Source: Pedobacter cryophilus (GTDB lineage: Bacteria; Bacteroidota; Bacteroidia; Sphingobacteriales; Sphingobacteriaceae). From it: a DNA stretch of 64,000 nt. The notes beneath the pieces are model-generated. The model ran no database searches and was not told the origin of the DNA. It worked only from the letters and a program-made list of their open reading frames with translations. This document shows, in pieces, positions 2,737 through 14,550 of this stretch; the first letter of the stretch is position 1, and every line of letters starts with the position of its first letter. Made by a program: the position numbers and the translations under genes. Where the stretch lies: the NCBI RefSeq assembly GCF_005116455.1, contig NZ_SWBP01000007.1, positions 62,001 to 126,000 on the forward strand. The letters run 5' to 3'.

Positions 2737-3915
2737 CTAGCCAACATGTTTATACATATTATTTAATTTATCCATCGTATCGTATAAATCTGCGGGTAAT
2801 GTTTTAGCATAAATTTGAGTTTGAACAATGTTGGTATGACCAAGCAAATCCTTTAGATGAGGCATATACGTTCCTGCTTCGACATGGTTTGAGGCAAAAG
2901 TGTGTCTTGCACAATGGAAACTAATGGATTTTGTAATACCTGCTAACTCCATTAATTCCTTAATCCCTCTGTTAATTACTTGATTCGCCATTTTTGGTAA
3001 AGCCAAAGATTTAGGGCTCTTAATGGTCAGCTTTGAATATTTATCTAGAATCTCTATTGCTTTTGATGATAATGGTATAGTTAAAGGTTTATCAGTTTTT
3101 TTAACTTGAATCTCAATTCTTTCTGGTTCTGATTTTATGTTTTCCCATCTCACATTTACAACATCAGAGTACCTCAGTCCGGTAAAACAACTGAATAAAA
3201 AAAGGTCTTTTACCCTATTTAAAAAGCCATTATTCGCCGGAATTTCCAAAACCATTATTTGTTTAACTTCATCAATTGACAAGAATTTCCTATTACCAAC
3301 TGCTGACTTTATTTTGAAGTAGCGATAAGGATTCTCATTCATATAACCTTTCATGATGGCTTGATTGATCATTGCTTTTAAAATTTTGTGTTTAGTAAAA
3401 CATCCCCCTGTAGAGTTTGATCTAACTTTCCTTAAAAACAAATCAAACTTCTGAATACAGTCATAGGACAAGTCGCCAAAGTTTAATTTGGGATTGAACT
3501 CTCTTATAACATTAAGCCCACTTTTGTAAGATTTCAAAGTATTAGGCTCTTTAGTTAACTGCCAAAGATCAATCTGTTGCTCCCAAAATTTAAAAAGGCT
3601 CACTTTGGTATTATCTCTAAAATAATCCATAGCAACATTTAAGGTTATTGATTTACCCAAGCTTTCTCTAGTGAGCATAAAGGTCTCAAAGCCACTCTCT
3701 TTTTTATTAAGATATGTTGCTAAAAGTTGAAGGTATTTATCCTTCTTTTTTGGACAATTATTTTTATCATCCCAATCTTTGGGATTAATAGATTTACCAG
3801 ATGATAATCTTGTGGTTATTGCGCCAACACGTACAGAAAAGTGTATTGGGCAATTACCATCTTGTTTCATTTTATCTAGCCTTATCACGCTACGCACAGA
3901 AAAAGTCAATTTCAT
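2737..3915 (-). CDS. Tyrosine recombinase / integrase
   Basis: 392 residues, the usual length of Bacteroidetes phage/conjugative-transposon integrases. Domain order: N-terminal arm-binding region (about 1-90), SAM-like core-binding domain (about 105-205), catalytic domain (about 210-390). Catalytic residues are all visible: R248 in FTGLRYSD, K at about 273, H334 and R337 in HCARHTF, H360 in LLGH and the nucleophile Y369. The enzyme should be active. It marks the 1-6580 block as an integrative element. I found no duplicated attachment core inside the window, so the element ends are not fixed. Confidence 0.95.
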   Translation of the reverse strand: MKLTFSVRSVIRLDKMKQDGNCPIHFSVRVGAITTRLSSGKSINPKDWDDKNNCPKKKDKYLQLLATYLNKKESGFETFMLTRESLGKSITLNVAMDYFRDNTKVSLFKFWEQQIDLWQLTKEPNTLKSYKSGLNVIREFNPKLNFGDLSYDCIQKFDLFLRKVRSNSTGGCFTKHKILKAMINQAIMKGYMNENPYRYFKIKSAVGNRKFLSIDEVKQIMVLEIPANNGFLNRVKDLFLFSCFTGLRYSDVVNVRWENIKSEPERIEIQVKKTDKPLTIPLSSKAIEILDKYSKLTIKSPKSLALPKMANQVINRGIKELMELAGITKSISFHCARHTFASNHVEAGTYMPHLKDLLGHTNIVQTQIYAKTLPADLYDTMDKLNNMYKHVG

Positions 3916-4027: not shown

Positions 4028-4312
4028 TTATCTGTATCCTCTTTCCCTTCCTTTTGCCTTTAGATAAAACATAGTCGCCGCCCTATCTTTTTGATGTATC
4101 ATTTCAATTAGATTACTCTCTACATAATCTAAAAAAGTGAGATCAATTTCCCTCACTTTAAAGGCAAATTCGGCATCTATCTTTTGCCATTCATAAAACT
4201 GAGTTCTTCCCACATTGGCTCTTCTACATCCTACAGTTTTTATACCACAACAAGTTGTTAAATGGTTTAATACCTCTATCTTTTTCTGTTGAATTGTTCT
4301 ATTATTTTTCAT
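4028..4312 (-). CDS. phBC6A51-type HTH, terminase small subunit-like
   Basis: 94 residues. An HTH region (TVGCRRANVGRTQFYEWQK) is followed by the signature seen in phage terminase small subunit-like proteins of the phBC6A51 type: acidic helix, LDYVESNLIEMI, then ATMFYLKAKGRERGY at the C-terminus. In phages this fold recognises DNA ends for packaging; here no large terminase or structural gene is present, so it more likely acts as a DNA-binding partner. Its start overlaps the end of the upstream dioxygenase-like gene by 11 bases, implying translational coupling and a shared function. Confidence 0.7.
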   Translation of the reverse strand: MKNNRTIQQKKIEVLNHLTTCCGIKTVGCRRANVGRTQFYEWQKIDAEFAFKVREIDLTFLDYVESNLIEMIHQKDRAATMFYLKAKGRERGYR

Positions 4313-5138
4313 TTTCTAATAACATTTTAAGTTTTCCTTTTGGTTGATCTATGTACATTTGATATTTGTCCCATTCTTCTTTTTCGGACAAGCATAAGTT
4401 CATTCCACTATTATTGTAATAGACTATAGTATATCGATAACCACCCGGTGCTTGGTGAATTTTGGTTACACCATGAAGAAGCTTTTTCCCATCAAATAAG
4501 AGTAAGAACCTATTTTGACATGCAAATCCAATGTTTAATTCTGGCAATATGAGTTCTCCTCCGAGAATATTTTCCTTGAGGATAATCATACATGAAATAC
4601 CACTTGATGTATTCGCTTTATCGTAATGATAATTTAGATTGGAGTTCTTATTAATGACACCCCCCGTAAATGGTGTTCCTTTTATTAAGTAATCTGGATG
4701 AATTCTTTTTTTACCTACATAACTACTTTTCACTTGGTGGGCATAAGCTGTTTTAAAATAAGATCTATACCATTTTGCAACGTTCTTCCCTTGTTTAATA
4801 AAAACCTCATGTTTGGATGGGTATTTAACCCCAAGCCTTGATTTTCTGCAAACATTTTGTCTTAAGGCATTTCTAGGTGAAAAATTGAAATTGATTGTTT
4901 TTGAGACTAATCCATTTGTTCTTTCACGTTCGTCAAATTTCAGAGACAAACATGTTTCCAAAACTCCATCTATGTCAAAGTCTATACGCTTATAAACTGC
5001 AACAATTTCACCACTCACATATACAATCGCTTCTTCCCTTATTATTTCACTAATGTGCTCAGTATTTGGCGTTTGAATTTTTAAGCCTCTGATCTGCGCT
5101 TCGTTAAGTTTATTCTGCTGTACTATTACCTTTTTCAT
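4302..5138 (-). CDS. TET/JBP-like 2OG-Fe(II) dioxygenase
   Basis: 278 residues. Residues 150-245 carry the ordered features of a double-stranded beta-helix 2-oxoglutarate/Fe(II) dioxygenase: TPFTG at 155-159, the metal-binding HxD at H171/D173 (in YHYD), GGELILPE at 193-200, the distal metal ligand H222 (in LLHGVTKI) and the 2OG-binding R235. This order matches TET/JBP family enzymes, which oxidise methylated or plain pyrimidines in DNA; phage members exist. The first 145 residues are unrecognised. The gene overlaps the ParB-like gene upstream by 29 bases and the HTH gene downstream by 11. Oxidation of DNA bases is inference; a protein hydroxylase cannot be excluded. Confidence 0.7.
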   Translation of the reverse strand: MKKVIVQQNKLNEAQIRGLKIQTPNTEHISEIIREEAIVYVSGEIVAVYKRIDFDIDGVLETCLSLKFDERERTNGLVSKTINFNFSPRNALRQNVCRKSRLGVKYPSKHEVFIKQGKNVAKWYRSYFKTAYAHQVKSSYVGKKRIHPDYLIKGTPFTGGVINKNSNLNYHYDKANTSSGISCMIILKENILGGELILPELNIGFACQNRFLLLFDGKKLLHGVTKIHQAPGGYRYTIVYYNNSGMNLCLSEKEEWDKYQMYIDQPKGKLKMLLENEK

Positions 5139-5769
5139 ATGAATCCATTAATGTCATTAACACTTGTGATTTGTTCCTCAATTGCAATTTCTTCTTTAAC
5201 TCCTCTATTCTTTTCATGTATGACAATGGGATTGTTGCAATTAACTTCTGATTACAGATGTTGTCGTCTTCACCTTTTTCGTAATCATTTTTTTCCATTT
5301 TGTTGTTTTCAACTGGAGTAGAACACAAATCGGCAGTGCTAAATCCAAAATCATTGATGAGATCAAATTCTTCAAAAGCAGCTGTAAAGCCAAAGTCAGA
5401 TGCGGTAAATAGAGAAACTTGCTGATTTAAAAATAAATGAAGTCTTTTTGAATGTTCCATTGGTGCATCAAGCTTTATACAAGGAATAGTTTTATTCCCC
5501 ATATATTTCCATATCTCCAATCTATGCCAACCGTCGATAACTTGATTTTTATTATTGATGAATATTGCGCCTAAGAACCCATGTTCATGGAAACTTGTGG
5601 TTAATGTTCGTAGTCTTTCTGGTAAGACTTTTTTGGTGTGAAACTCAGGTCTTGTGAGTTCGTCAATGTTGAATTCTTCAATATTCTCTGGAGAACAAAG
5701 CTCCTCTTTCTGAACTTGATTTTTCACCTGGTCATACAGGTCTTGAATTTTTTTGTTTAAATCTTTCAT
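5110..5769 (-). CDS. ParB/Srx-fold protein
   Basis: 219 residues from the ATG at 5769; an in-frame start at 5814 adds 15 residues with no clear benefit. Residues about 30-105 form a ParB N-terminal (ParB/sulfiredoxin-like) domain: RPEFHTKK, then INNKNQVIDGWHRLEIWKYM and IPCIKLD. The GWHR at 80-83 stands where chromosome ParB has GERR, as is common in phage and plasmid ParB-like proteins that accompany DNA-modifying enzymes. A basic, helical C-terminus may bind DNA. It is first in a three-gene overlapping unit with the dioxygenase-like and HTH genes. CTPase, nuclease or specificity roles are all possible. Confidence 0.8.
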   Translation of the reverse strand: MKDLNKKIQDLYDQVKNQVQKEELCSPENIEEFNIDELTRPEFHTKKVLPERLRTLTTSFHEHGFLGAIFINNKNQVIDGWHRLEIWKYMGNKTIPCIKLDAPMEHSKRLHLFLNQQVSLFTASDFGFTAAFEEFDLINDFGFSTADLCSTPVENNKMEKNDYEKGEDDNICNQKLIATIPLSYMKRIEELKKKLQLRNKSQVLMTLMDSYEKGNSTAE

Positions 5770-5869
5770 AACATTTATATTTTTTGTTGATACAAATGTC
5801 TGACTAAAATACATAGCTAAAAATCCACACGTTATCCTGTGGATTGTTAATCTATTGAATTACAAGCTA

Positions 5870-8402: not shown

Positions 8403-9017
8403 TTATATGTGATTGTTGCTTTTCCATAAATTGCTGAGTATGTTTAGATCTTGATCATTTATAACAGCTGACGCTTCTGGACGGACGTTACATACGTATT
8501 TTCTAGGTTTTTCAAAATATCTACTTTCCTTATCTGTTTCATAAAATAAGCCTTGAAATACTCTCGATCCGATAGATAAGTTGATTGGATTGTTATTATA
8601 GTTAGTCAACTCAATCGATAAGCACCCACAGTAGCCCGGTTGTGCTATTGTGGACATCGTAAGTCCCAGTCTTGAATAGGAACTTCTCATACATAGGGCC
8701 AGTAGGTAATTTTCTGGTAGCTTAACATATTCCAAGCTCGTTGCTAAAACAGTTTGATTCGGATGCAATATAAATGTCTCGCCTAACTGTCTTCTGGTTT
8801 CTTGAAAAAAGTGCTTCGATGTGCTCCTGCCAAACTCTTGGTTAAGAGAAGCATTTATAAGTGGCTCCCTACCCTGTACAGATACTAGGAAATTCCCGCC
8901 CAATCTAAAATCTATTCCTACCGAGGTGATTTGATCTTCTTCTAATAAGGGCTTTATGATCAGCTTTTGTTCTGCGATTAACGCCTTGATAGCATCCGAC
9001 GTGATTATACTGCTCAT
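8403..9017 (-). CDS. dCTP deaminase / dUTPase-fold protein
   Basis: 204 residues, close to the 193 of E. coli dCTP deaminase. Family features in order: VGIDFRLGGNF (33-43), TVLATSLEYVKLPENY (89-104), RSSYSRLGL (111-119), QPGYCGCLSIELTN (126-139) and IGSRVFQGLFYE. The substrate-binding R111-S112-S113 and the general base equivalent E136 are kept, so deamination of dCTP is likely. It overlaps the upstream metalloprotease gene by 4 bases (ATGA) and is last in an operon headed by XRE and ImmA/IrrE genes. Such context, rather than a nucleotide-synthesis operon, suggests dCTP depletion in phage defence; that role is inferred. Confidence 0.85.
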   Translation of the reverse strand: MSSIITSDAIKALIAEQKLIIKPLLEEDQITSVGIDFRLGGNFLVSVQGREPLINASLNQEFGRSTSKHFFQETRRQLGETFILHPNQTVLATSLEYVKLPENYLLALCMRSSYSRLGLTMSTIAQPGYCGCLSIELTNYNNNPINLSIGSRVFQGLFYETDKESRYFEKPRKYVCNVRPEASAVINDQDLNILSNLWKSNNHI

Positions 9018-10144
9018 CCTTTACTTTTTTGCCAATTTTGAACTGTAAAATAATTTCCAATAGACTTTTCAACCAAATTGTTGATCACTCTATAAATCGT
9101 ATCTTCTGATAAATTTACATCGTATTTCATCTCGTCATTGAACTTTTTAAAGTCTTCCATCCATACGTCCCATCCATAAACAATTGTCCCATGTAATTCC
9201 CTATCATTTTGAATGTCATAAGGCACTAAAGTATGAAAATCATTAGACGTAACTCTGTCAAAACGAATCTCAAGGGATTTCCCGGTTAACACATTAACAA
9301 CACTCTGCAGGTAATTGATAATAGGGTTATCATTTCCATTTACAAAGTCAGAGATAACCTGTATTCTATTTACTGTTGATGGATGGGTAGGCGAGTCAAT
9401 TTCACTTTTACTCGTAATATATTCTAAAAAAAGGCCTATTGTTTCACCTATGTATTGTGCTGCAAATAAATCGCAAAAATACTCGCCTAAATGATAAATC
9501 AACTTCGGACGATCCATTTCGGCTTCTTTCAATAGCGGTAGAAACATTTCGAGACTCGCTTTTTCTTTGAATTCTCCCGATAATATAAGGTATGCTGCTA
9601 CACCAGTGATAGAGTGCTGTAGATCGACAAAGTGACCTAGCTCATGATACAGCGCGACCGATGATAGATAGTCTTTAGATAAATTCAATGGTAAATTTAT
9701 CTGAATAAGTTTTCTTTCAAAGTTTATTCCATATTCTGTTTGTAGTGATTGATAGAAAATGTCATTTTTCGCATATGAGAGGTCATAGCTAAATGAGTAT
9801 AGACTATTCTGTAGACTTGTAACGATTATGAATTTTTCGGGATCGATCCAGTCGCTCATTGCTCGGTCTAAGCAACCTACGACTTCAAACGGAATAGTAT
9901 TTAATGTACTATCTTTTAAAAACTCCAGGCTTTTAAAAATAAAATCCAAATGATTTTTTTTCTCAAATATCTTAGCGTCATCGAGCCCATCATTTATACT
10001 AGACTTGATTCCATTGAATAATTCAACTAAGTTTTTAAGGTACTGATCCTTATACTTGTCGGAAAAATTATATTTCTTTGAGCTTGATATTAGTGTTTCT
10101 GCCTGGTATAGCTGTAGATATAAAAGACGTTTAATCGGAAGCAT
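9014..10144 (-). CDS. HExxH zinc metalloprotease-like protein
   Basis: 376 residues without signal peptide or membrane segment. The zincin motif HELGH is at 167-171, with a likely third ligand region at 221-225 (EYFCD) and an M48-like SPTHPSTVNRI at 251-261. The N-terminal 150 residues are helical and unrecognised. A soluble zinc protease inside the same operon as an ImmA/IrrE peptidase and a dCTP-deaminase-like gene could be an activator or effector. I do not recognise a named family. It starts 15 bases after the end of the 100-residue gene. Confidence 0.75.
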   Translation of the reverse strand: MLPIKRLLYLQLYQAETLISSSKKYNFSDKYKDQYLKNLVELFNGIKSSINDGLDDAKIFEKKNHLDFIFKSLEFLKDSTLNTIPFEVVGCLDRAMSDWIDPEKFIIVTSLQNSLYSFSYDLSYAKNDIFYQSLQTEYGINFERKLIQINLPLNLSKDYLSSVALYHELGHFVDLQHSITGVAAYLILSGEFKEKASLEMFLPLLKEAEMDRPKLIYHLGEYFCDLFAAQYIGETIGLFLEYITSKSEIDSPTHPSTVNRIQVISDFVNGNDNPIINYLQSVVNVLTGKSLEIRFDRVTSNDFHTLVPYDIQNDRELHGTIVYGWDVWMEDFKKFNDEMKYDVNLSEDTIYRVINNLVEKSIGNYFTVQNWQKSKG

Positions 10145-10158
10145 CTAGACTAAACCCC

Positions 10159-10461
10159 TTATGCAAAAGCATAATTTTTGTTGTCACTAATAATCTCCTG
10201 TAATTGTTTGAGTTCCTCTCTGGAAGGTTTACTTACATCGACCTTTAATAACCAGTCATGAGCGAATCTGTCAATTAAGATTTTAAGATTAAGCGAAGTT
10301 TTATCAAGTTCATACACCGACTTGCCGGAAGCAAGTGATTTGGCATCTTCAAGCAAATTGATTACAAAAGAATTATACCTCTCGTCACCCTTTATTGCGT
10401 TGTATAGAAACGAAAGAAAAAATTCAATTTCCTGATCTGAAGAGTTATGCGACATTAACAT
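10159..10461 (-). CDS. Small acidic helical protein
   Basis: 100 residues (an ATG two codons later is equally possible). No family recognised; the sequence is predicted helical with a DNA/partner-binding feature not obvious. It is separated by 161 AT-rich bases from the ImmA/IrrE gene upstream and by only 14 bases from the metalloprotease gene downstream, so it should be translated with the latter. It could be an inhibitor or adaptor of the protease; this is speculation from position. Confidence 0.6.
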   Translation of the reverse strand: MLMSHNSSDQEIEFFLSFLYNAIKGDERYNSFVINLLEDAKSLASGKSVYELDKTSLNLKILIDRFAHDWLLKVDVSKPSREELKQLQEIISDNKNYAFA

Positions 10462-10622
10462 AGCTGAGAATTTGATTGTATAAATATATATATACCTATC
10501 GAATAAAATACCAAGATGGGCTAGAAAAAAAAATCTTGTTAACAGTAATTATCAACATTTTTTTAAAAAAATGATATAAAATATTTATTTACAAGTGTTT
10601 ATAGAAATAGTTATTAACATTA

Positions 10623-11507
10623 TTAATAACTATTAATGATAACTTTAGTCTTTCCACCACTTTTTTCGCCTTTCGGATATATTAGAACGAAAGCATTATA
10701 TGAGGTATCGAAGAAATCATAATTGAAACTCAAAATGCCATCATAGGTATTAATGTTAATCTCTTGTTCAAATTTCATTCGTTTTCTGAAATAATAGTCC
10801 TGGACAAAAGGCCAAGTAAATCCGAGTTGTTTCTCCCAAGAAATGGTGCCAAAATTTTTGGTGAACTTAGGGGACTGGAAGTAGTCACGAACTGTACAGT
10901 TTGCAACTTCATTTTTTGGACTTATATCTTTTAAGACAAGTAATGCGCATCTGTTCGGCGAATACTCAACGAATCTGCGAATCGCTGCATGATTGGAACC
11001 TCCAAATAATTTAGCGAGCGCCATGGCGCTTTTAATCCCAAATTCAAGTTTAGCCATCTCATCTTCGAACCTATCAAGTTGAAACAAAGTAGCAGATGCA
11101 AATAGATTTGCTTCTGCTTCGAACTGTTCTCTATAATCCAGACTTAGTGTGTTGTCGTCATCCAAAAAGGAACTAGTCTGGTTTTGCCAAGGAAGTACTC
11201 CGTGTCCTACCTCATGAAGTTTAACGAAATTTTTCTTCTGGTCGTTTTGTGATAAGTCTAAGTATATTGTCTTTTCGCTTCTATCAAACAATCCCCTTAC
11301 TTTAGCCAAAGCGCTGAATAAAGCATCTGTAGCCTTTGATAAATAGCCATGGTGTATTTTTGAAACATCCACGGTTTTATTAACGATTAGATCCGAATAG
11401 TTAACAATACTGTCAACAGGAGTTGGGAATTTACCCCAGCTATTGCTCGATTTTAAAATATCATACGCAATTGTTTCTATATCCTTTTTTGCATGTGGAT
11501 CAACCAT
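10623..11507 (-). CDS. ImmA/IrrE family metallopeptidase
   Basis: 294 residues. The zinc motif HEVGH lies at 98-102 (KLHEVGHGVLPW) and the third ligand glutamate in FEAEANLFA at about 129-137, the ImmA/IrrE (Peptidase_M78) pattern. The C-terminal 150 residues are an extra domain of unknown role, possibly a sensor. Known relatives cleave a partner XRE repressor on a stress signal. Here the XRE gene lies directly upstream and overlaps by 8 bases, supporting such a pair. Confidence 0.9.
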   Translation of the reverse strand: MVDPHAKKDIETIAYDILKSSNSWGKFPTPVDSIVNYSDLIVNKTVDVSKIHHGYLSKATDALFSALAKVRGLFDRSEKTIYLDLSQNDQKKNFVKLHEVGHGVLPWQNQTSSFLDDDNTLSLDYREQFEAEANLFASATLFQLDRFEDEMAKLEFGIKSAMALAKLFGGSNHAAIRRFVEYSPNRCALLVLKDISPKNEVANCTVRDYFQSPKFTKNFGTISWEKQLGFTWPFVQDYYFRKRMKFEQEININTYDGILSFNYDFFDTSYNAFVLIYPKGEKSGGKTKVIINSY

Positions 11508-11841
11508 TACGCTTTTCGTGTCTTAGAAATTTTAAATATTTCATCAATGCATCTTCCTCTTCTGAAGAAAGTTGCTGAGAGGATAGTGCAATTGAATTTA
11601 GCATTTTAGTTTTAGGAGTATTCGATTCTTCAATGATCCCCGCAGCCCCTAATAGCACTTCCAATTCTATATTATATGCCGTTGCCAATTTGTGTAGAAC
11701 ATTGGCGGATGGCTTTTTAATTTTCTCATTTTCTACCTGGCTAAGGTAAGCATTCGAAATTCCTGTCGCTTCTTCCACTTGTTTCAGCGTAAAAGATGCC
11801 TGCTCCCTTGCATCCTTTAAAGTTCGTCCTAGTGATTTCAT
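11500..11841 (-). CDS. XRE-family transcriptional regulator
   Basis: 113 residues. A Cro/CI-type HTH occupies residues about 5-65 (LGRTLKDAREQASFTLKQVE, GISNAYLSQVENEKIKKPSA), followed by a linker and a helical tail that may be the ImmA cleavage region. It is the first gene of the leftward operon, with a consensus promoter and a 21-base palindrome just upstream. By analogy with ImmR/ImmA pairs I infer it represses its own operon and probably the divergent ubiquitin-like operon. Confidence 0.9.
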   Translation of the reverse strand: MKSLGRTLKDAREQASFTLKQVEEATGISNAYLSQVENEKIKKPSANVLHKLATAYNIELEVLLGAAGIIEESNTPKTKMLNSIALSSQQLSSEEEDALMKYLKFLRHEKRNG

Positions 11842-11859
11842 GGCTTTTTATTTAGAGTT

Positions 11860-11891
11860 CAAATGTAAGAATAAATTCTCATTTCACCAAA
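11860..11891 (-). promoter_or_regulatory. Bacteroidetes-type promoter of the XRE operon
   Basis: On the minus strand TTTG (11888-11891) and TACATTTG (11860-11867) are separated by exactly 20 bases, matching the TTTG/TAnnTTTG consensus of Bacteroidetes. The start codon of the XRE gene follows 19 bases after the -7 element. Confidence 0.8.
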
Positions 11892-11898
11892 CTGATCT

Positions 11899-11919
11899 AA
11901 TTTATAATCGTTATAAATT
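11899..11919. promoter_or_regulatory. Operator-like 21-bp palindrome
   Basis: AATTTATAA and TTATAAATT form a perfect dyad around TCG. It abuts the upstream side of the leftward -33 element, a fitting site for the XRE regulator or an activator. Confidence 0.6.
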
Positions 11920-11939
11920 TAACTAATCTTATTATTTTA

Positions 11940-11971
11940 TTTGGTATAATTAGATTTACTAATTATATTTG
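11940..11971 (+). promoter_or_regulatory. Bacteroidetes-type promoter facing the ubiquitin-like operon
   Basis: TTTG (11940-11943) and TATATTTG (11964-11971) are separated by 20 bases, a full consensus match. Transcription would start near 11978, giving a leader of about 260 bases before the gene at 12240. No other good -7 element was seen closer to that gene. Confidence 0.75.
11945..11967. promoter_or_regulatory. Operator-like 23-bp palindrome inside the rightward promoter
   Basis: TATAATTAG and CTAATTATA form a perfect 9-base dyad around ATTTA. It fills the spacer and overlaps the -7 element of the rightward promoter, so binding there would block RNA polymerase. The half sites are AT-rich like those of the 11899 palindrome, though not identical. 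Confidence 0.6.
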
Positions 11972-12061
11972 TATCGTTCGCAGCTACTTAAGATTGAACG
12001 ATAAAAATTAACTATTTAAATATAACATTCTAATCATGAGATACGAGACATAAAAAAATAA

Positions 12062-12137
12062 AGCCCAATCGCCGACAGAGGGAAATTGGGCTAACAAAGA
12101 GGGCAAAGTTTGGCGACTCTCCGGGAATAGTTCCCGG
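12062..12137. ncRNA. Structured leader or small RNA
   Basis: Two strong hairpins: AGCCCAAT/ATTGGGCT (12062-12069 with 12085-12092) and CCGGGAA/TTCCCGG around TAG (12121-12137). On the minus strand the first hairpin is followed by TTATTTTTTT, the form of a terminator, so a minus-strand small RNA of about 100-170 bases ending near 12052 is possible. Alternatively both hairpins belong to the 5' leader of the rightward operon. GTCGCC and GGCGAT segments could also pair with each other (minus-strand sense). The stretch is clearly richer in G and C than its surroundings. Confidence 0.5.
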
Positions 12138-12239
12138 CCGCACCTCAAAAGCTTCTGCAAGTTACATATTTTCTAAAGAAATCTGCAATAGAAGTAAGCT
12201 ACCTCTGAAGTTATTTACTAATAAGAAAATTCTATTGGA

Positions 12240-12932
12240 ATGAAAAATTTAGAAGAAGAAGAAAAAAACGAAAGCGCAAAGACTCTGACATTTATTGTTG
12301 ATGAGCGCACATATGTAAGCCGTAAGCAGAATGTTAACGGCAGTGAAATTAAGGTAGTATCAGGTATTCCACTCGATACAAAACTTTACCTTCAGAATAG
12401 CAGACCGTGGATCGACAACCTTATCGAAAATGATGAGGAAGTTGATCTAGCCCGTCCTGGGATCGAATATTTTTTCACAGAAAAAAGGTTCGAGATTAAT
12501 GTGAACGGTAAGATTTATTCATGGCATCAAAGGTATATTACCGGCGAGCAAGTTAGGGAGCTAGTTGGACTTGATAAAGAAGATCAATTATTTCTAAAGA
12601 CAAGTCACAGCAGCATAGATCAACTTATCGCAAATGATGACAAAGTGGATCTTCAAGAACCAGGTATTGAGCAGTTTTATTCAATACAGAAGGGCAAGCA
12701 AATTACTATTATTGTTAGCGGTGTGCAAAAGCAATGGGATAAGAAAAAAATCTCATTCAAGGAGGTTGTTATATTGGCATACGGACAATATGAAGATCGT
12801 CCTACAATGGTTTATACTGTTGCATATGAAGATGGTCCTAAGCAGAATCCGGAAGGCTCTATGATTAAAGGTTCAGAAGTGGTTACTAAAAACATGATGA
12901 TTTTCCATGCAACAGCAACTGATAAATCATAG
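12240..12932 (+). CDS. Multiubiquitin-domain protein (ubiquitin-like modifier)
   Basis: 230 residues made of three beta-grasp repeats: about 15-80 (ending DEEVDLARPGIEYFF), 83-150 (VNGKIYSW, LTGE-like TGEQVRELVG, DDKVDLQEPGIEQFY) and a longer C-terminal domain 153-230 (ITIIVSG, ISFKEVVILAYG, YTVAYEDGP, PEGSMIKG, MIFHATATDKS). This matches the multiubiquitin family of bacterial ubiquitin-like proteins. The chain ends in ATDKS, not Gly-Gly. It is first in a four-gene overlapping operon with DUF6791-like, E1-like and DUF6527-like genes, the set known from comparative genomics as a bacterial ubiquitination-like (Bub-type) pathway. Whether the repeats act as one polymeric modifier is unknown to me. 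Confidence 0.9.
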   Translation: MKNLEEEEKNESAKTLTFIVDERTYVSRKQNVNGSEIKVVSGIPLDTKLYLQNSRPWIDNLIENDEEVDLARPGIEYFFTEKRFEINVNGKIYSWHQRYITGEQVRELVGLDKEDQLFLKTSHSSIDQLIANDDKVDLQEPGIEQFYSIQKGKQITIIVSGVQKQWDKKKISFKEVVILAYGQYEDRPTMVYTVAYEDGPKQNPEGSMIKGSEVVTKNMMIFHATATDKS

Positions 12933-13353
12933 TCCAGACCTGAAGAAGCTTCAGGATCAAGGGTATGACATTTTAGCGGACGGCGGGTATCTTATTACCC
13001 GCCATGTCCCATACCTGGACGCTAATCTCACAGTAAAATATGGTACGCTTGTCTGTCTGTTGACCTTGGCAACACCCACACGGGCTGGTAGTCCGCAAGA
13101 TCATACAATCTACTTTTGTGGAGAAGTACCTTGCGATGCACAAGGGATCGCTTTGCACTCTGTAATTAATGAGAGCAGGTGGCAACAACTGACCCCGGAA
13201 ATTGCTGTGGATCATTATTTTTCAAGCAAACCACCTTCGGGTAATTACCCTAATTTTTATGAGAAGGTCTCTACTTATGCAAAGATTTTAGGATCGCAGG
13301 CACAAGCAATAGATCCTTCAGTTACTTGGACACCTTTAAAAAAACAGCCATGA
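12907..13353 (+). CDS. DUF6791-like component of the conjugation operon
   Basis: 148 residues. The sequence fits the domain I know as DUF6791, normally the N-terminal part of a fused DUF6791-ThiF protein: SPDLKKLQDQGYDI, GGYLITRHVPYL, KYGTLVCLLTLA, FCGEVPCD, DHYFSSKPPSGNY and AQAIDPSVTW near the end. It may be the E2-like or E1-accessory part; I am not certain. It begins inside the multiubiquitin gene (26-base overlap). It ends at a TGA that overlaps the next start as ATGA, just after a TTTAAAAAAAC run, so it is separated from the E1 domain with which it is usually fused. Confidence 0.85.
   Translation: MQQQLINHSPDLKKLQDQGYDILADGGYLITRHVPYLDANLTVKYGTLVCLLTLATPTRAGSPQDHTIYFCGEVPCDAQGIALHSVINESRWQQLTPEIAVDHYFSSKPPSGNYPNFYEKVSTYAKILGSQAQAIDPSVTWTPLKKQP
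13335..13353 (+). promoter_or_regulatory. Slippery run and ATGA overlap at the DUF6791/E1 junction
   Basis: In the DUF6791 frame the ribosome reads CCT TTA AAA AAA CAG CCA TGA. T TTA AAA and A AAA AAA are both valid -1 slippery heptamers, and a -1 slip leads directly into the ThiF frame, giving the fusion normal for this family. The same bases offer an ATGA stop-start overlap (13350-13353). Either frameshifting, coupled reinitiation or an assembly indel in the seven-A run could explain the split. Confidence 0.6.
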
Positions 13354-14081
13354 CAAACAATGTTTTTAGATATCCCGACACCAATTCTTCAAGGGCAAAA
13401 ATTGAGATGCTTAATGAAAAATTTGATAGCCTTAAAATAGGTATCATTGGGGTGGGTGGTACTGGTGCATATATATTAGACCTGATTTCAAAGACACCTG
13501 TAGCAGAAATCCACCTCTATGATGGTGATATTTTTCAGCTACACAATGCCTTTCGAGCACCGGGTGCCACTCCAGCCGCAAAATTTGACATTGAAGGCGA
13601 CCTTACTAAAGTTGACTATTACTATCAAGTTTACAATGAAATGCATAGCGGAATATTTCCACATCAACAGTATATCACATTGAAAAACATCGGTGAGTTA
13701 GATGGCTTGGATTTTGTATTTCTAAGCGTAGATAGGAATTCAGTGCGTTATGAAATCACAAATGCCCTATTGGCTATGTGCATTCCATTCATTGATGTGG
13801 GTCTTGGAGTAAATGCCCTGGAAAATGAATTAATAGGTACGCTACGGGTAACATTAGTAACGGAAGAAAAAAGTGACCATCTACCCAATAGAATTGGACC
13901 TGACGAAGCAGCAGAAAATGAGTATAAAACTAATATACAGATTGCAGATTTGAATTGCCTAAATGCTGCACACGCTGTTGTCGCCTGGAAACGATACGTC
14001 GGGTTTTATCAGGATTTGAAAAAAACGCACAACTCACTTTATTTCATTAATACTGGAAAATTGATAAATGAAGACACTTAA
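13350..14081 (+). CDS. ThiF/E1-like adenylating enzyme
   Basis: 243 residues from the ATG at 13350; an upstream in-frame TTG at 13326 is less likely. A Rossmann ATP-binding loop GVGGTG is at 34-39, followed by LYDGD (56-60), HNAFRAPG (65-72, holding the E1-type Asn and Arg), FLSVDRN (124-130) and FIDVG (147-151). The NIQIADLNCLNAAHAV segment (195-210) and INEDT C-terminus are typical of the multiubiquitin-linked ThiF family. It should adenylate the C-terminus of the modifier. Cysteines at 144 and 203 are visible, but I cannot tell whether either is catalytic. It overlaps the next gene by 14 bases. Confidence 0.9.
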   Translation: MTNNVFRYPDTNSSRAKIEMLNEKFDSLKIGIIGVGGTGAYILDLISKTPVAEIHLYDGDIFQLHNAFRAPGATPAAKFDIEGDLTKVDYYYQVYNEMHSGIFPHQQYITLKNIGELDGLDFVFLSVDRNSVRYEITNALLAMCIPFIDVGLGVNALENELIGTLRVTLVTEEKSDHLPNRIGPDEAAENEYKTNIQIADLNCLNAAHAVVAWKRYVGFYQDLKKTHNSLYFINTGKLINEDT

Positions 14082-14550
14082 GCCAAATTTTGTAGAGTTT
14101 ATTCCCGATGTAATTGGTGATGATACCCTGTATATTTCTATGAAATATAAAACTGTTAGACACAAATGTGTTTGCGGGTGCGGTAACATAGTCATCACTC
14201 CAATAACACCTAATGATTGGTGGCTGAAATACAATGGCGCTGGAGTCACATTAAAACCTTCCATTGGAAATTGGGGGTTCAGTTGCCGGTCACATTATTG
14301 GATTATCAATAGCGCAGTTATTTGGGCAGAAGAGTGGAGCGACAAAGAGGTCAAAATAAAAAGGGAAAAAGATTTCAATCGCAAAAAAACATACTACAAA
14401 GATATAAAAGCAAAAAAAAATGCGAAGGATGGAAGATTCTTTGTCTTTTTTAAAAAGTTATATGCCACACGATTTAAATCAATTATTCAAAAAATTCTCC
14501 ATCAAAACCTTATTATAAAAAAACTTGGTGGAAAATATGGTAATATATAG
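14068..14550 (+). CDS. DUF6527-like zinc-binding protein
   Basis: 160 residues. The first 95 match what I recognise as DUF6527: FVEFIPDVIGDDTLYIS, RHKCVCGCGN (H32, C34, C36, C38), DWWLKYNGAGVTLKPSIGNW and FSCRSHYWI (C73, H76), a likely zinc site. This family recurs with multiubiquitin/E1 genes and has been suggested to remove or process the modifier. Residues 95-160 are a basic, aromatic-rich tail (KIKREKDFNRKKTYYKDIKA) not typical of the family in my memory. It is last in the operon and a terminator follows. Confidence 0.85.
   Translation: MKTLKPNFVEFIPDVIGDDTLYISMKYKTVRHKCVCGCGNIVITPITPNDWWLKYNGAGVTLKPSIGNWGFSCRSHYWIINSAVIWAEEWSDKEVKIKREKDFNRKKTYYKDIKAKKNAKDGRFFVFFKKLYATRFKSIIQKILHQNLIIKKLGGKYGNI

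What the first reader, a model, noticed from the sequence alone, without database searches (positions are those of the whole stretch)
8403..14550. Divergent XRE-ImmA / dCTP-deaminase operon and ubiquitin-like conjugation operon sharing one control region
Seen: a leftward operon (XRE, ImmA/IrrE, 100-aa protein, HExxH protease, dCTP-deaminase-like) faces a rightward operon (multiubiquitin, DUF6791-like, E1-like, DUF6527-like). Both start from full-consensus promoters about 80 bases apart with palindromes between. Known: ImmA/IrrE peptidases inactivate XRE repressors; dCTP deaminases and ubiquitin-like pathways each occur in antiphage defence. Inference: a two-armed, signal-induced defence unit in which proteolysis of the XRE protein releases nucleotide depletion and protein conjugation together. 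I do not know a described system with this composition.
Basis: partly seen in the sequence, partly recalled or inferred. Interest (0 to 1): 0.9.

Follow-up and report, generated by a model that had tools for sequence, protein, structure and literature searches.

The report
Ubiquitin-like operon with added protease cassette
A bacterium carries a ubiquitin-like protein-tagging operon next to a regulator pair of a kind known to respond to DNA damage; here they are joined by an uncharacterised three-gene protease and nucleotide-enzyme cassette that also sits beside such operons elsewhere, and by a possible small antisense RNA.

Summary
Leftward: XRE, ImmA/IrrE, 100-aa protein, HExxH protein, dCTP-deaminase-like protein. 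Rightward: multiubiquitin, DUF6791, ThiF/E1, DUF6527. They share a control region. The core is published: a Bub (bacterial ubiquitination-like) operon beside a CapH+CapP-type pair (PMC13373217: 219 of 544 Bub operons lie next to CapW or CapH+CapP). ImmA matches CapP best (PADLOC 6e-20; PDB 7t5t 7e-10). Seven of seven examined loci share facing TAnnTTTG boxes and an operator-like site. Not found in the papers searched: (1) p100-HExxH-DCD is a separable mobile cassette, in 12 distinct loci of two phyla; a multiubiquitin-E1 operon lies beside 6 of 12 (3 of 9 lineages), in three layouts, and Rhizobiaceae loci also carry a capH/capP-like pair. From the Bub side it is rare: 0 clear cases in 93 loci, one remote. 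It docks onto Bub and is no obligate arm. (2) Bub leaders hold an antisense small-RNA candidate: terminator in 16 of 23 versus 18 of 261 control leaders; terminator plus promoter box 11 of 23 versus 1 of 261. The window copy lacks a consensus box. (3) E2-like and E1 parts are split in a few relatives. Phage defence and CapH control of the cassette are inferred.

The parts
8403..9017 (-). dCTP-deaminase-like protein (DCD), third gene of the cassette
   Evidence: PF22769 1.4e-27; TIGR02274 above its cut-off; Glu136 and Arg-Ser-Ser 111-113 invariant in 11 aligned sequences; Gln126 invariant where the five PDB alignments displayed (four of them E. coli variants) have Asp
9014..10144 (-). HExxH metalloprotease-like protein, M48-like pattern, second gene of the cassette
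   Evidence: invariant HELGH, H218, E221, H254-P255 and R260 in 11 aligned sequences; sub-cut-off Pfam M48 hits of two relatives, E 0.01 and 0.003; phrog_24479 1.5e-43, function unknown
10159..10461 (-). 100-aa helical protein (p100), first gene of the cassette
   Evidence: a gene of this size precedes the HExxH gene in the 12 loci counted as intact; sequence similarity to the window copy only within the own family; single-sequence model has 4 helices, pLDDT 76
10623..11507 (-). CapP-like ImmA/IrrE peptidase
   Evidence: PADLOC capP 6.4e-20; profile hits PDB 7t5t CapP at 7e-10; HExxH and downstream Glu residues invariant
11500..11841 (-). CapH-like XRE repressor
   Evidence: PADLOC HTH_VI 5.4e-14, capH 3e-12; aligned with 6 relatives, 41-60% identity
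11860..11867 (-). -7-type box of the leftward promoter
   Evidence: CAAAnnTA 14-25 nt from the capH start in 7 of 7 loci
11941..11957 (+). candidate CapH operator TTGGTATAATTAGATTT just upstream of the rightward -7 box
   Evidence: TTGATATATTTAGATTT at 2 or fewer mismatches in 7 of 7 loci at this place (motif read off the same loci); background 13 of 1392 windows at 3 or fewer. In the window alone it is not above chance
11964..11971 (+). -7-type box TATATTTG of the rightward (Bub) promoter
   Evidence: TAnnTTTG present at this place in 7 of 7 loci
12052..12146 (-). antisense small-RNA candidate in the Bub leader: core 12099-12146, terminator hairpin 12062-12092 with T-run to its left
   Evidence: three-way junction plus terminator, z -2.5 for 12052-12152; leader survey; no consensus -7 box in the window copy
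12240..12932 (+). multiubiquitin (ubiquitin-like modifier)
   Evidence: PF14452, 3 repeats, 8.5e-33; PDB 9cd2 2.8e-26
12907..13353 (+). DUF6791 protein (E2-like by its place in the operon)
   Evidence: PF20590 3.3e-44; matches the N-terminal part of the PRK06153-type fused protein
13351..14081 (+). ThiF/E1-like protein; ATG at 13351 in an ATGA overlap (ORF list gives TTG 13326)
   Evidence: NF004805 2.9e-96, a model of a 392-aa protein; split also in L122 and L123
14068..14550 (+). DUF6527 protein, last gene of the Bub operon
   Evidence: PF20137 1e-20

Best explanation
This is a Bub operon (Ubl, E2-like DUF6791, E1, DUF6527) held silent by a CapH-type repressor on a shared, divergent control region. 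A CapP-type peptidase, probably activated by single-stranded DNA during DNA damage or phage replication, cleaves CapH. That opens both the Bub promoter and capH's own leftward promoter. The leftward transcript probably reads on into a mobile cassette (p100, M48-like metalloprotease, DCD-like enzyme), so protein tagging and a nucleotide-directed effector are made together. For the cassette I commit to this: the DCD-like enzyme drains or changes the dCTP pool, and the protease switches it on by removing p100 or part of the enzyme. A small RNA made antisense to the Bub leader probably lowers leaky Bub expression. Shown here by sequence: genes, conserved promoter boxes and operator-like site, the cassette as a unit, its recurrence beside Bub-type operons, and the excess of antisense terminators and promoter boxes in Bub leaders. 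Published for relatives: ssDNA-activated CapP cleaving CapH, and Bub next to CapH+CapP. Inferred: read-through into the cassette, its biochemistry, the RNA's role and phage defence.
For: ImmA: PADLOC capP 6.4e-20, PDB CapP 7e-10. Passages of PMC13373217: 219 of 544 Bub operons next to CapW or CapH+CapP. Facing -7 boxes and operator-like site in 7 of 7 loci. Cassette intact in 12 distinct loci. A multiubiquitin-E1 operon beside 6 of 12: window, L090, L092, L097, L105, L141, in three layouts; none in the 15-20 kb held around the other six. Rhizobiaceae HTH and ImmA (L090) score as capH 1.9e-8 and capP 1.9e-14. By contrast the window-type E1 occurs in only 14 of 395 sampled Bacteroidota genomes. 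Some other cassette neighbours are of defence type: type I R-M by annotation (L088), the antiphage dCTPase family (L105), a sub-cut-off Abi_2 hit (L095). Small RNA: 16 of 23 versus 18 of 261, and 11 of 23 versus 1 of 261; 13 of 15 fold better on the antisense strand.
Against: Bub has not been shown to protect against phage (PMC13373217, discussion). The cassette is absent from 79 of the 80 Bub loci (the exception, L061, is remote) and from the 14 further loci (13 new), apart from a lone weak HExxH profile match in L121 (1.1e-4, no DCD or p100). In 395 Bacteroidota genomes only the window's own had a clear HExxH relative. Six of 12 cassettes have no Bub-type or capHP-like gene found nearby, L097 has Bub but no capHP-like gene, and four of five Bacteroidota cassettes checked have their own TAnnTTTG box within 250 nt upstream of p100 (323 of 1954 background windows have one). 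The window operator has only one copy. The CapP cysteine switch is not met: no conserved Cys between HExxH and the downstream Glu in the Bacteroidota ImmA set. DCD has an invariant Gln where the displayed PDB enzymes have Asp, so its activity may differ. Small RNA: the window and L008 copies lack a consensus -7 box; 7 of 23 leaders and 7 of 9 further ones lack the terminator; RNAalifold on the class B alignment supports only the terminator; covariance model R1 found only one near-identical new copy. Limits for one search were set, and the loci are related.
Confidence: 0.57

Rival explanations
1. Neighbours without a joint function: a CapHP-controlled Bub operon and an independent mobile cassette sit side by side because both collect in defence or mobile islands.
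For: The cassette occurs without Bub next to R-M genes and on 90-109 kb E. coli/Salmonella plasmids. Bub loci almost never carry it. The window module lies on an island with an integrase beside tRNA genes.
Against: A Bub-type operon beside 3 of 9 cassette lineages in three arrangements, in one of them directly downstream on the same strand with a gap of about 70 bp, with a capHP-like pair present there too.
Confidence: 0.32
2. General DNA-damage response rather than antiphage immunity: ssDNA-activated CapP releases Bub tagging and dNTP adjustment to help the cell survive genotoxic stress.
For: [quoted passage not shown] dCTP deaminases are ordinary enzymes of dUTP/dTTP supply (recalled).
Against: The mobile location of the cassette and some defence-type neighbours.
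Confidence: 0.25
3. The leader element is not an antisense RNA but part of the Bub 5' UTR (an attenuator or protein-binding leader) read on the plus strand.
For: Hairpins also fold on the plus strand, L005 and L058 fold better there, and L004 shows a weak plus-strand match to the Bacteroid-trp leader, 30.6 bits against a cut-off of 49.
Against: Terminator-like hairpins with T-runs on the minus strand in 16 of 23 leaders against 3 of 23 on the plus strand; 13 of 15 fold better on the minus strand.
Confidence: 0.3

Closest known systems
Bub (bacterial ubiquitination-like) operons (Corbett laboratory; passages of PMC13373217 seen; Gong 2025 and Ye 2026 not held, known only by citation)
   Same: Ubl of the multi-ubiquitin type (PDB 9cd2, 2.8e-26), E1, DUF6791 and DUF6527 in one operon; a CapH+CapP-type pair next to it
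   Different: E2-like and E1 parts are separate genes in the window and two relatives; the cassette and the antisense RNA candidate appear in no text that my searches returned
CapH+CapP regulator pair
   Same: XRE repressor and ImmA/IrrE peptidase adjacent to and divergent from a candidate immune operon; PADLOC and PDB matches are HTH_VI/capH and CapP
   Different: No conserved cysteine between HExxH and the downstream Glu in the Bacteroidota set; here the pair seems to head a longer operon
Antiphage dCTP deaminase (PADLOC dCTPase)
   Same: A deaminase-type enzyme in defence loci; one such gene lies in the same locus as the cassette of L105 (PADLOC dCTPase 1.9e-158)
   Different: The window DCD hits no PADLOC model; it is a 204-aa DCD-fold protein with a protease and p100, not the 541-aa enzyme
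CapK+CapS-controlled Bub (PMC13373217)
   Same: DNA-damage-responsive control of Bub from an adjacent regulator pair
   Different: A kinase and STAS repressor instead of peptidase and XRE
Type II CBASS Cap2 / Bil E1-E2 systems (compared from recall)
   Same: ThiF/E1-like activation of a protein tag; weak PADLOC E1-E2 hits
   Different: No nucleotide cyclase among the operon's genes; separate multiubiquitin gene; DUF6527 and no JAB-type peptidase found

Membership tests
Bub operon | Ubl, E1 and E2-like genes in one operon | tested here: met
   PF14452, ThiF and DUF6791 in overlapping genes. That DUF6791 is the E2 is inferred from place and recall; the defining papers were not held
Bub operon | Bacterial Ubl of the solved multi-ubiquitin type | tested here: met
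   PDB 9cd2 at 2.8e-26, 9d59 at 1.4e-12; that these entries are from the Bub work is assumed
Bub operon | Conjugation activity | not testable with these tools
   needs biochemistry
CapH+CapP | XRE repressor plus ImmA/IrrE peptidase next to an immune operon promoter | tested here: met
CapH+CapP | HExxH plus downstream Glu zinc site | tested here: met
   H98, E99, H102, E130 and E132 invariant in 9 sequences
CapH+CapP | Cysteine switch between HExxH and the third zinc ligand | tested here: not met
   no Cys there in the window and no conserved Cys column in the six Bacteroidota sequences (L015 alone has one); the three Rhizobiaceae relatives have one. Switch as described in passages of PMC13273310. 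So the claim is: works like CapHP, not a proven member
CapH+CapP | ssDNA-stimulated cleavage of the repressor | not testable with these tools
   published for CapP (passage); not tested for this pair
dCTP deaminase | Whole-protein score above the curated model cut-off | tested here: met
   TIGR02274 113.6 bits, cut-off 92.8; PDB dCTP deaminase matches
dCTP deaminase | Catalytic Glu and the neighbouring Asp of the DPG motif | tested here: inconclusive
   Glu136 invariant, Asp replaced by an invariant Gln126 in 11 of 11
Antiphage dCTP deaminase (PADLOC dCTPase) | Match to the PADLOC model | tested here: not met
   no hit at E 0.1 for the window, L089, L105 or L061 DCD
Peptidase family M48 | Pfam PF01435 above its cut-off | tested here: not met
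   16.1 bits for L089 and 17.8 for L061 against 20.3; the window protein was not hit

The most novel reading that the evidence does not exclude
A three-layer immune unit: ssDNA-activated proteolysis opens a divergent promoter pair, an antisense RNA family specific to Bub leaders keeps the tagging operon quiet, and a previously undescribed mobile protease/p100/deaminase cassette adds nucleotide attack to protein tagging. The same union was assembled independently in Bacteroidota and Alphaproteobacteria.
Probability: 0.28. Interest if true: 0.82.

Novelty: new variant of a known kind. Interest (0 to 1): 0.6.

Why it matters
Bub operons are widespread, but according to PMC13373217 none has been shown to protect against phage. 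A cassette with a testable enzyme (a DCD-like protein) that repeatedly sits beside them suggests what pathway they work with, and the 12 loci give natural variants to test. The antisense RNA candidate would add an RNA layer to a system described, in the text I saw, only with protein regulators. The operator-like site, shared by seven loci, makes CapH control of Bub directly testable by reporter fusion.

Tried and rejected
Sigma-70 promoters: not above chance. Rfam: no family above its gathering score except the two tRNAs. Fold of the HExxH protein: unusable, pLDDT 43, so no fold search was run. p100: 4 helices, pLDDT 76 in the best of five models, the others 44-55; no fold search. PDB profile search with the HExxH alignment: none. 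PDB searches with the E1 and DUF6791 proteins: none. Viral contigs: no relative of the HExxH protein, no match to two leader patterns. Phage records: no HExxH relative, although PHROGs holds families for the E. coli p100 and the HExxH protein. Plasmid search with the L008 leader: none. Descriptor scan for the RNA (no shuffled control): 33 hits in 1.9 Mb, most of which I judge chance; it recovered L004, L008, L058, L123 and L124 but not the window or L057; not used as evidence. Pattern search in 296 genomes: one hit, at a Bub leader; the pattern does not match the window's own copy. RNAalifold on class B: terminator only. Covariance model R1 over 48 sources: 4 training members plus one near-identical copy; it missed L123 and L058. 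Sub-cut-off Pfam matches resting on the HExxH motif were judged chance: Peptidase_M43 (E 0.038, window protein) and a zinc-protease toxin family (E 0.074, L105 protein). The 625-aa neighbour of L091 matches only the C-terminal, presumably nitrilase, parts of PADLOC DRT models and is not counted as a reverse transcriptase. Rows dropped from the cassette count: the remote L061, a weak 146-residue match in G033, two diverged or broken Salmonella plasmid copies (L093; NZ_MK356558), a 24-residue Sinorhizobium match, and ten E. coli/Salmonella plasmid records at 90% or more counted once as L089. L129 repeats L037. Assembly error as the cause of the E2/E1 split: rejected, because L122 and L123 are split too.


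Full report
1. What is there. The HExxH and 100-aa proteins match no Pfam, NCBIfam or PADLOC model above threshold. The XRE and ImmA proteins match PADLOC HTH_VI/capH and capP. A profile of nine ImmA sequences finds CapP of the PDB (7t5t) at 7e-10 and IrrE at 0.0014. The ubiquitin-like protein matches a solved bacterial multi-ubiquitin protein, 9cd2, at 2.8e-26.

2. The core is published. Passages of PMC13373217 (I saw passages only) name Bub operons. They report 219 of 544 next to CapW or CapH+CapP and 59 next to CapK+CapS, and state that phage protection by Bub has not been demonstrated. Passages (PMC13273310) give the published CapP mechanism second-hand: ssDNA opens a cysteine switch and CapP cleaves CapH. 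Gong 2025 and Ye 2026, and the CapH/CapP paper that I looked for by a recalled DOI, are not held and were not read.

3. Relatives of the Bub operon. A genome scan with the E1 found 83 relatives and kept 80 loci. With the window proteins as queries (E 1e-2), an XRE relative appears in 7 of 80, six of them upstream and divergent; an ImmA relative appears in 8 of 80; both upstream and divergent in 5 of 80 (L005, L008, L010, L015, L057). Several contigs end close to the operon and more distant regulators would be missed, so these are lower bounds. In 395 Bacteroidota genomes the E1 was found in 14 at E 1e-20.

4. Control region. Seven loci with an XRE relative upstream were examined (window, L001, L005, L008, L010, L015, L057). 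In all seven a leftward CAAAnnTA box lies 14-25 nt from the capH start and a rightward TAnnTTTG box about 105-123 nt from it. TTGATATATTTAGATTT lies just upstream of the latter at 2 or fewer mismatches, against 13 of 1392 background windows at 3 or fewer, or 8 of 502 A+T-rich ones. The motif was read off these same loci. In the window the three sites are 11860-11867, 11964-11971 and 11941-11957. Within the window alone the operator-like site is not above chance (2 found, 1.84 expected), so the support is comparative. A reverse copy at 2 or fewer mismatches is seen in L001, L005 and L010, not in the window.

5. The leftward extra genes are a cassette. HExxH searches found intact p100-HExxH-DCD trios in the window, in four other genomes of the family (L094-L097; 5 of 301 genomes with the window's), on an Emticicia plasmid (L088), on 90-109 kb E. 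coli/Salmonella plasmids (L089; 8 of 5426 E. coli genomes, all on plasmids), on a Bradyrhizobium plasmid (L091), and in four Rhizobiaceae (L090, L092, L105 on plasmids; L141, 1 of 247 genomes). That is 12 distinct loci with the E. coli/Salmonella records counted once. In the phylum sample only the window's genome and one weak match were found among 395. p100 is recognised by similarity to the window copy only within the own family; elsewhere it is assigned by size and place (11-23% identity). The HExxH protein keeps HELGH, a downstream H..E and an HP....R motif. That resembles the M48 pattern (recalled), with sub-cut-off Pfam support from two relatives. DCD keeps the catalytic Glu: it aligns with the residue that differs between E. 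coli PDB entries 1xs1, 2v9x and 1xs4. It has an invariant Gln where the five displayed PDB sequences have Asp.

6. Link with Bub. Six of 12 cassettes have a multiubiquitin-E1 operon beside them: window, L097, L090, L092, L105, L141. The four Rhizobiaceae loci are one lineage, so 3 of 9 lineages. No such gene was found at E 1e-2 in the 15-20 kb held around the other six. The layouts differ: behind capHP and divergent from Bub (window); divergent from a Multi_ubiq plus 125-aa plus 501-aa ThiF operon (E2-like and JAB parts by eye only, not by Pfam), with no capHP-like gene found (L097); about 70 bp behind Bub with a capHP-like pair divergent (Rhizobiaceae; PADLOC capH 1.9e-8, capP 1.9e-14 for L090). 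From the other side, cassette proteins were found near 1 of 80 Bub loci, and that one is remote (L061: DCD 1.1e-31, HExxH 8e-4, no p100). Among 14 further loci (13 new) there was no DCD or p100, and one lone weak HExxH profile match (L121, 1.1e-4). Other cassettes sit with type I R-M genes by annotation (L088), a sub-cut-off Abi_2 hit (L095), or a protein matching the C-terminal parts of DRT models (L091). This reads as a mobile, probably defence-related cassette that docks onto Bub repeatedly, not as an obligate second arm.

7. Antisense RNA candidate. I surveyed 23 Bub leaders, chosen as Bacteroidota-like: 20 of the 80 loci, two same-genus loci close to each other (L103, L104) and the window; for a few the Ubl start is approximate. 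An intrinsic terminator on the strand antisense to Bub was found in 16. In 11 of these a TAnnTTTG box lies 85-130 nt before its end. Controls: other ORF leaders of the same loci 18 of 261 and 1 of 261; plus strand of the same leaders 3 of 23 and 1 of 23. The limits were set after seeing the first scan and the loci are related, so the P values (6e-12, 8e-13) are indicative only. In the further set (14 loci, 13 new, 9 with a callable Ubl start) two of nine had it, L123 and L124. Of 15 elements folded on both strands, 13 fold better antisense. Five elements (window, L004, L008, L057, L058) each fold alone into a stem enclosing two hairpins, followed by the terminator; stems set side by side by hand, with L123 and L124 added by eye, show changed but kept pairs. 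Alignment-based tests are weak. A plasmid search with the L103 leader hit a single record, in front of another Bub operon; the L008 leader hit none. A pattern search in 296 genomes hit one place, also a Bub leader. The window copy has no consensus promoter box, so its activity is less certain.

8. Setting. The module lies on an island with an integrase (2737-3915) and a TET/JBP-like oxygenase (4302-5138), beside tRNA-Glu and tRNA-Met and era. The tRNAs stand beside era in six of six genomes of the genus that were checked. In four compared by blastn, the match to the window begins at the tRNAs and nothing held to their left matches. No direct repeat of the tRNA end longer than 15 nt was found elsewhere in the window.

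9. How it most likely works: see Best explanation, where shown and inferred steps are separated. Absence from print rests on searches of the held library, of which I saw only the listed rows (at most 20 per search); none of those titles and abstract beginnings, nor the passages I read, describes the cassette or a small RNA at Bub. Most subscription papers are not held.

Noticed in passing
window 4302-5138 (-) and 5110-5814 (-): A TET/JBP-family 2OG-Fe(II) oxygenase (PF12851, 6.9e-13) next to a protein that looks ParB-like by eye (no Pfam hit at 0.001), on an integrase-bearing island: possible DNA base modification genes.
   Followed up: partly
window 12907-14081; L122; L123: The DUF6791 and ThiF parts, in one frame in L001-L016, are in two frames as overlapping or closely coupled genes in the window and in two relatives.
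   Followed up: yes
L103, L104 (same genus): A different Bub operon, with the leader RNA candidate but with no capHP or cassette seen, lies among conjugation-type genes (by eye), with a subtilase-like and an AAA-like gene nearby.
   Followed up: partly
L097 11342-14820: Cassette next to a Bub-like operon of another build (Multi_ubiq, 125-aa protein, 501-aa ThiF protein) without a capHP-like gene; an unassigned 214-aa and a 136-aa gene lie between.
   Followed up: partly
L095 5075-6511 and 15286-16722: The cassette is flanked by two direct copies of a gene pair: a 311-aa protein with a PADLOC DrmA hit (1.6e-7) and a 121-aa DUF4325 STAS-like protein.
   Followed up: no
L093 (Salmonella plasmid, 98.5 kb): Diverged, apparently broken pieces of the HExxH and DCD genes; described only.
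   Followed up: no
L061 4340-6931: A remote version in Sphingopyxis: 187-aa gene, 427-aa HExxH protein with M48-like motifs, DCD, about 2 kb upstream of a Bub operon.
   Followed up: partly
window 12900-12932 and L103/L104: The Ubl C-terminus ends in TATDKS in the window and in the same-genus operons, with no terminal Gly-Gly; where it is processed is unknown.
   Followed up: no
L121: Lone weak match (1.1e-4) to the HExxH profile in a Bub locus, without DCD or p100; may be any zinc peptidase.
   Followed up: no
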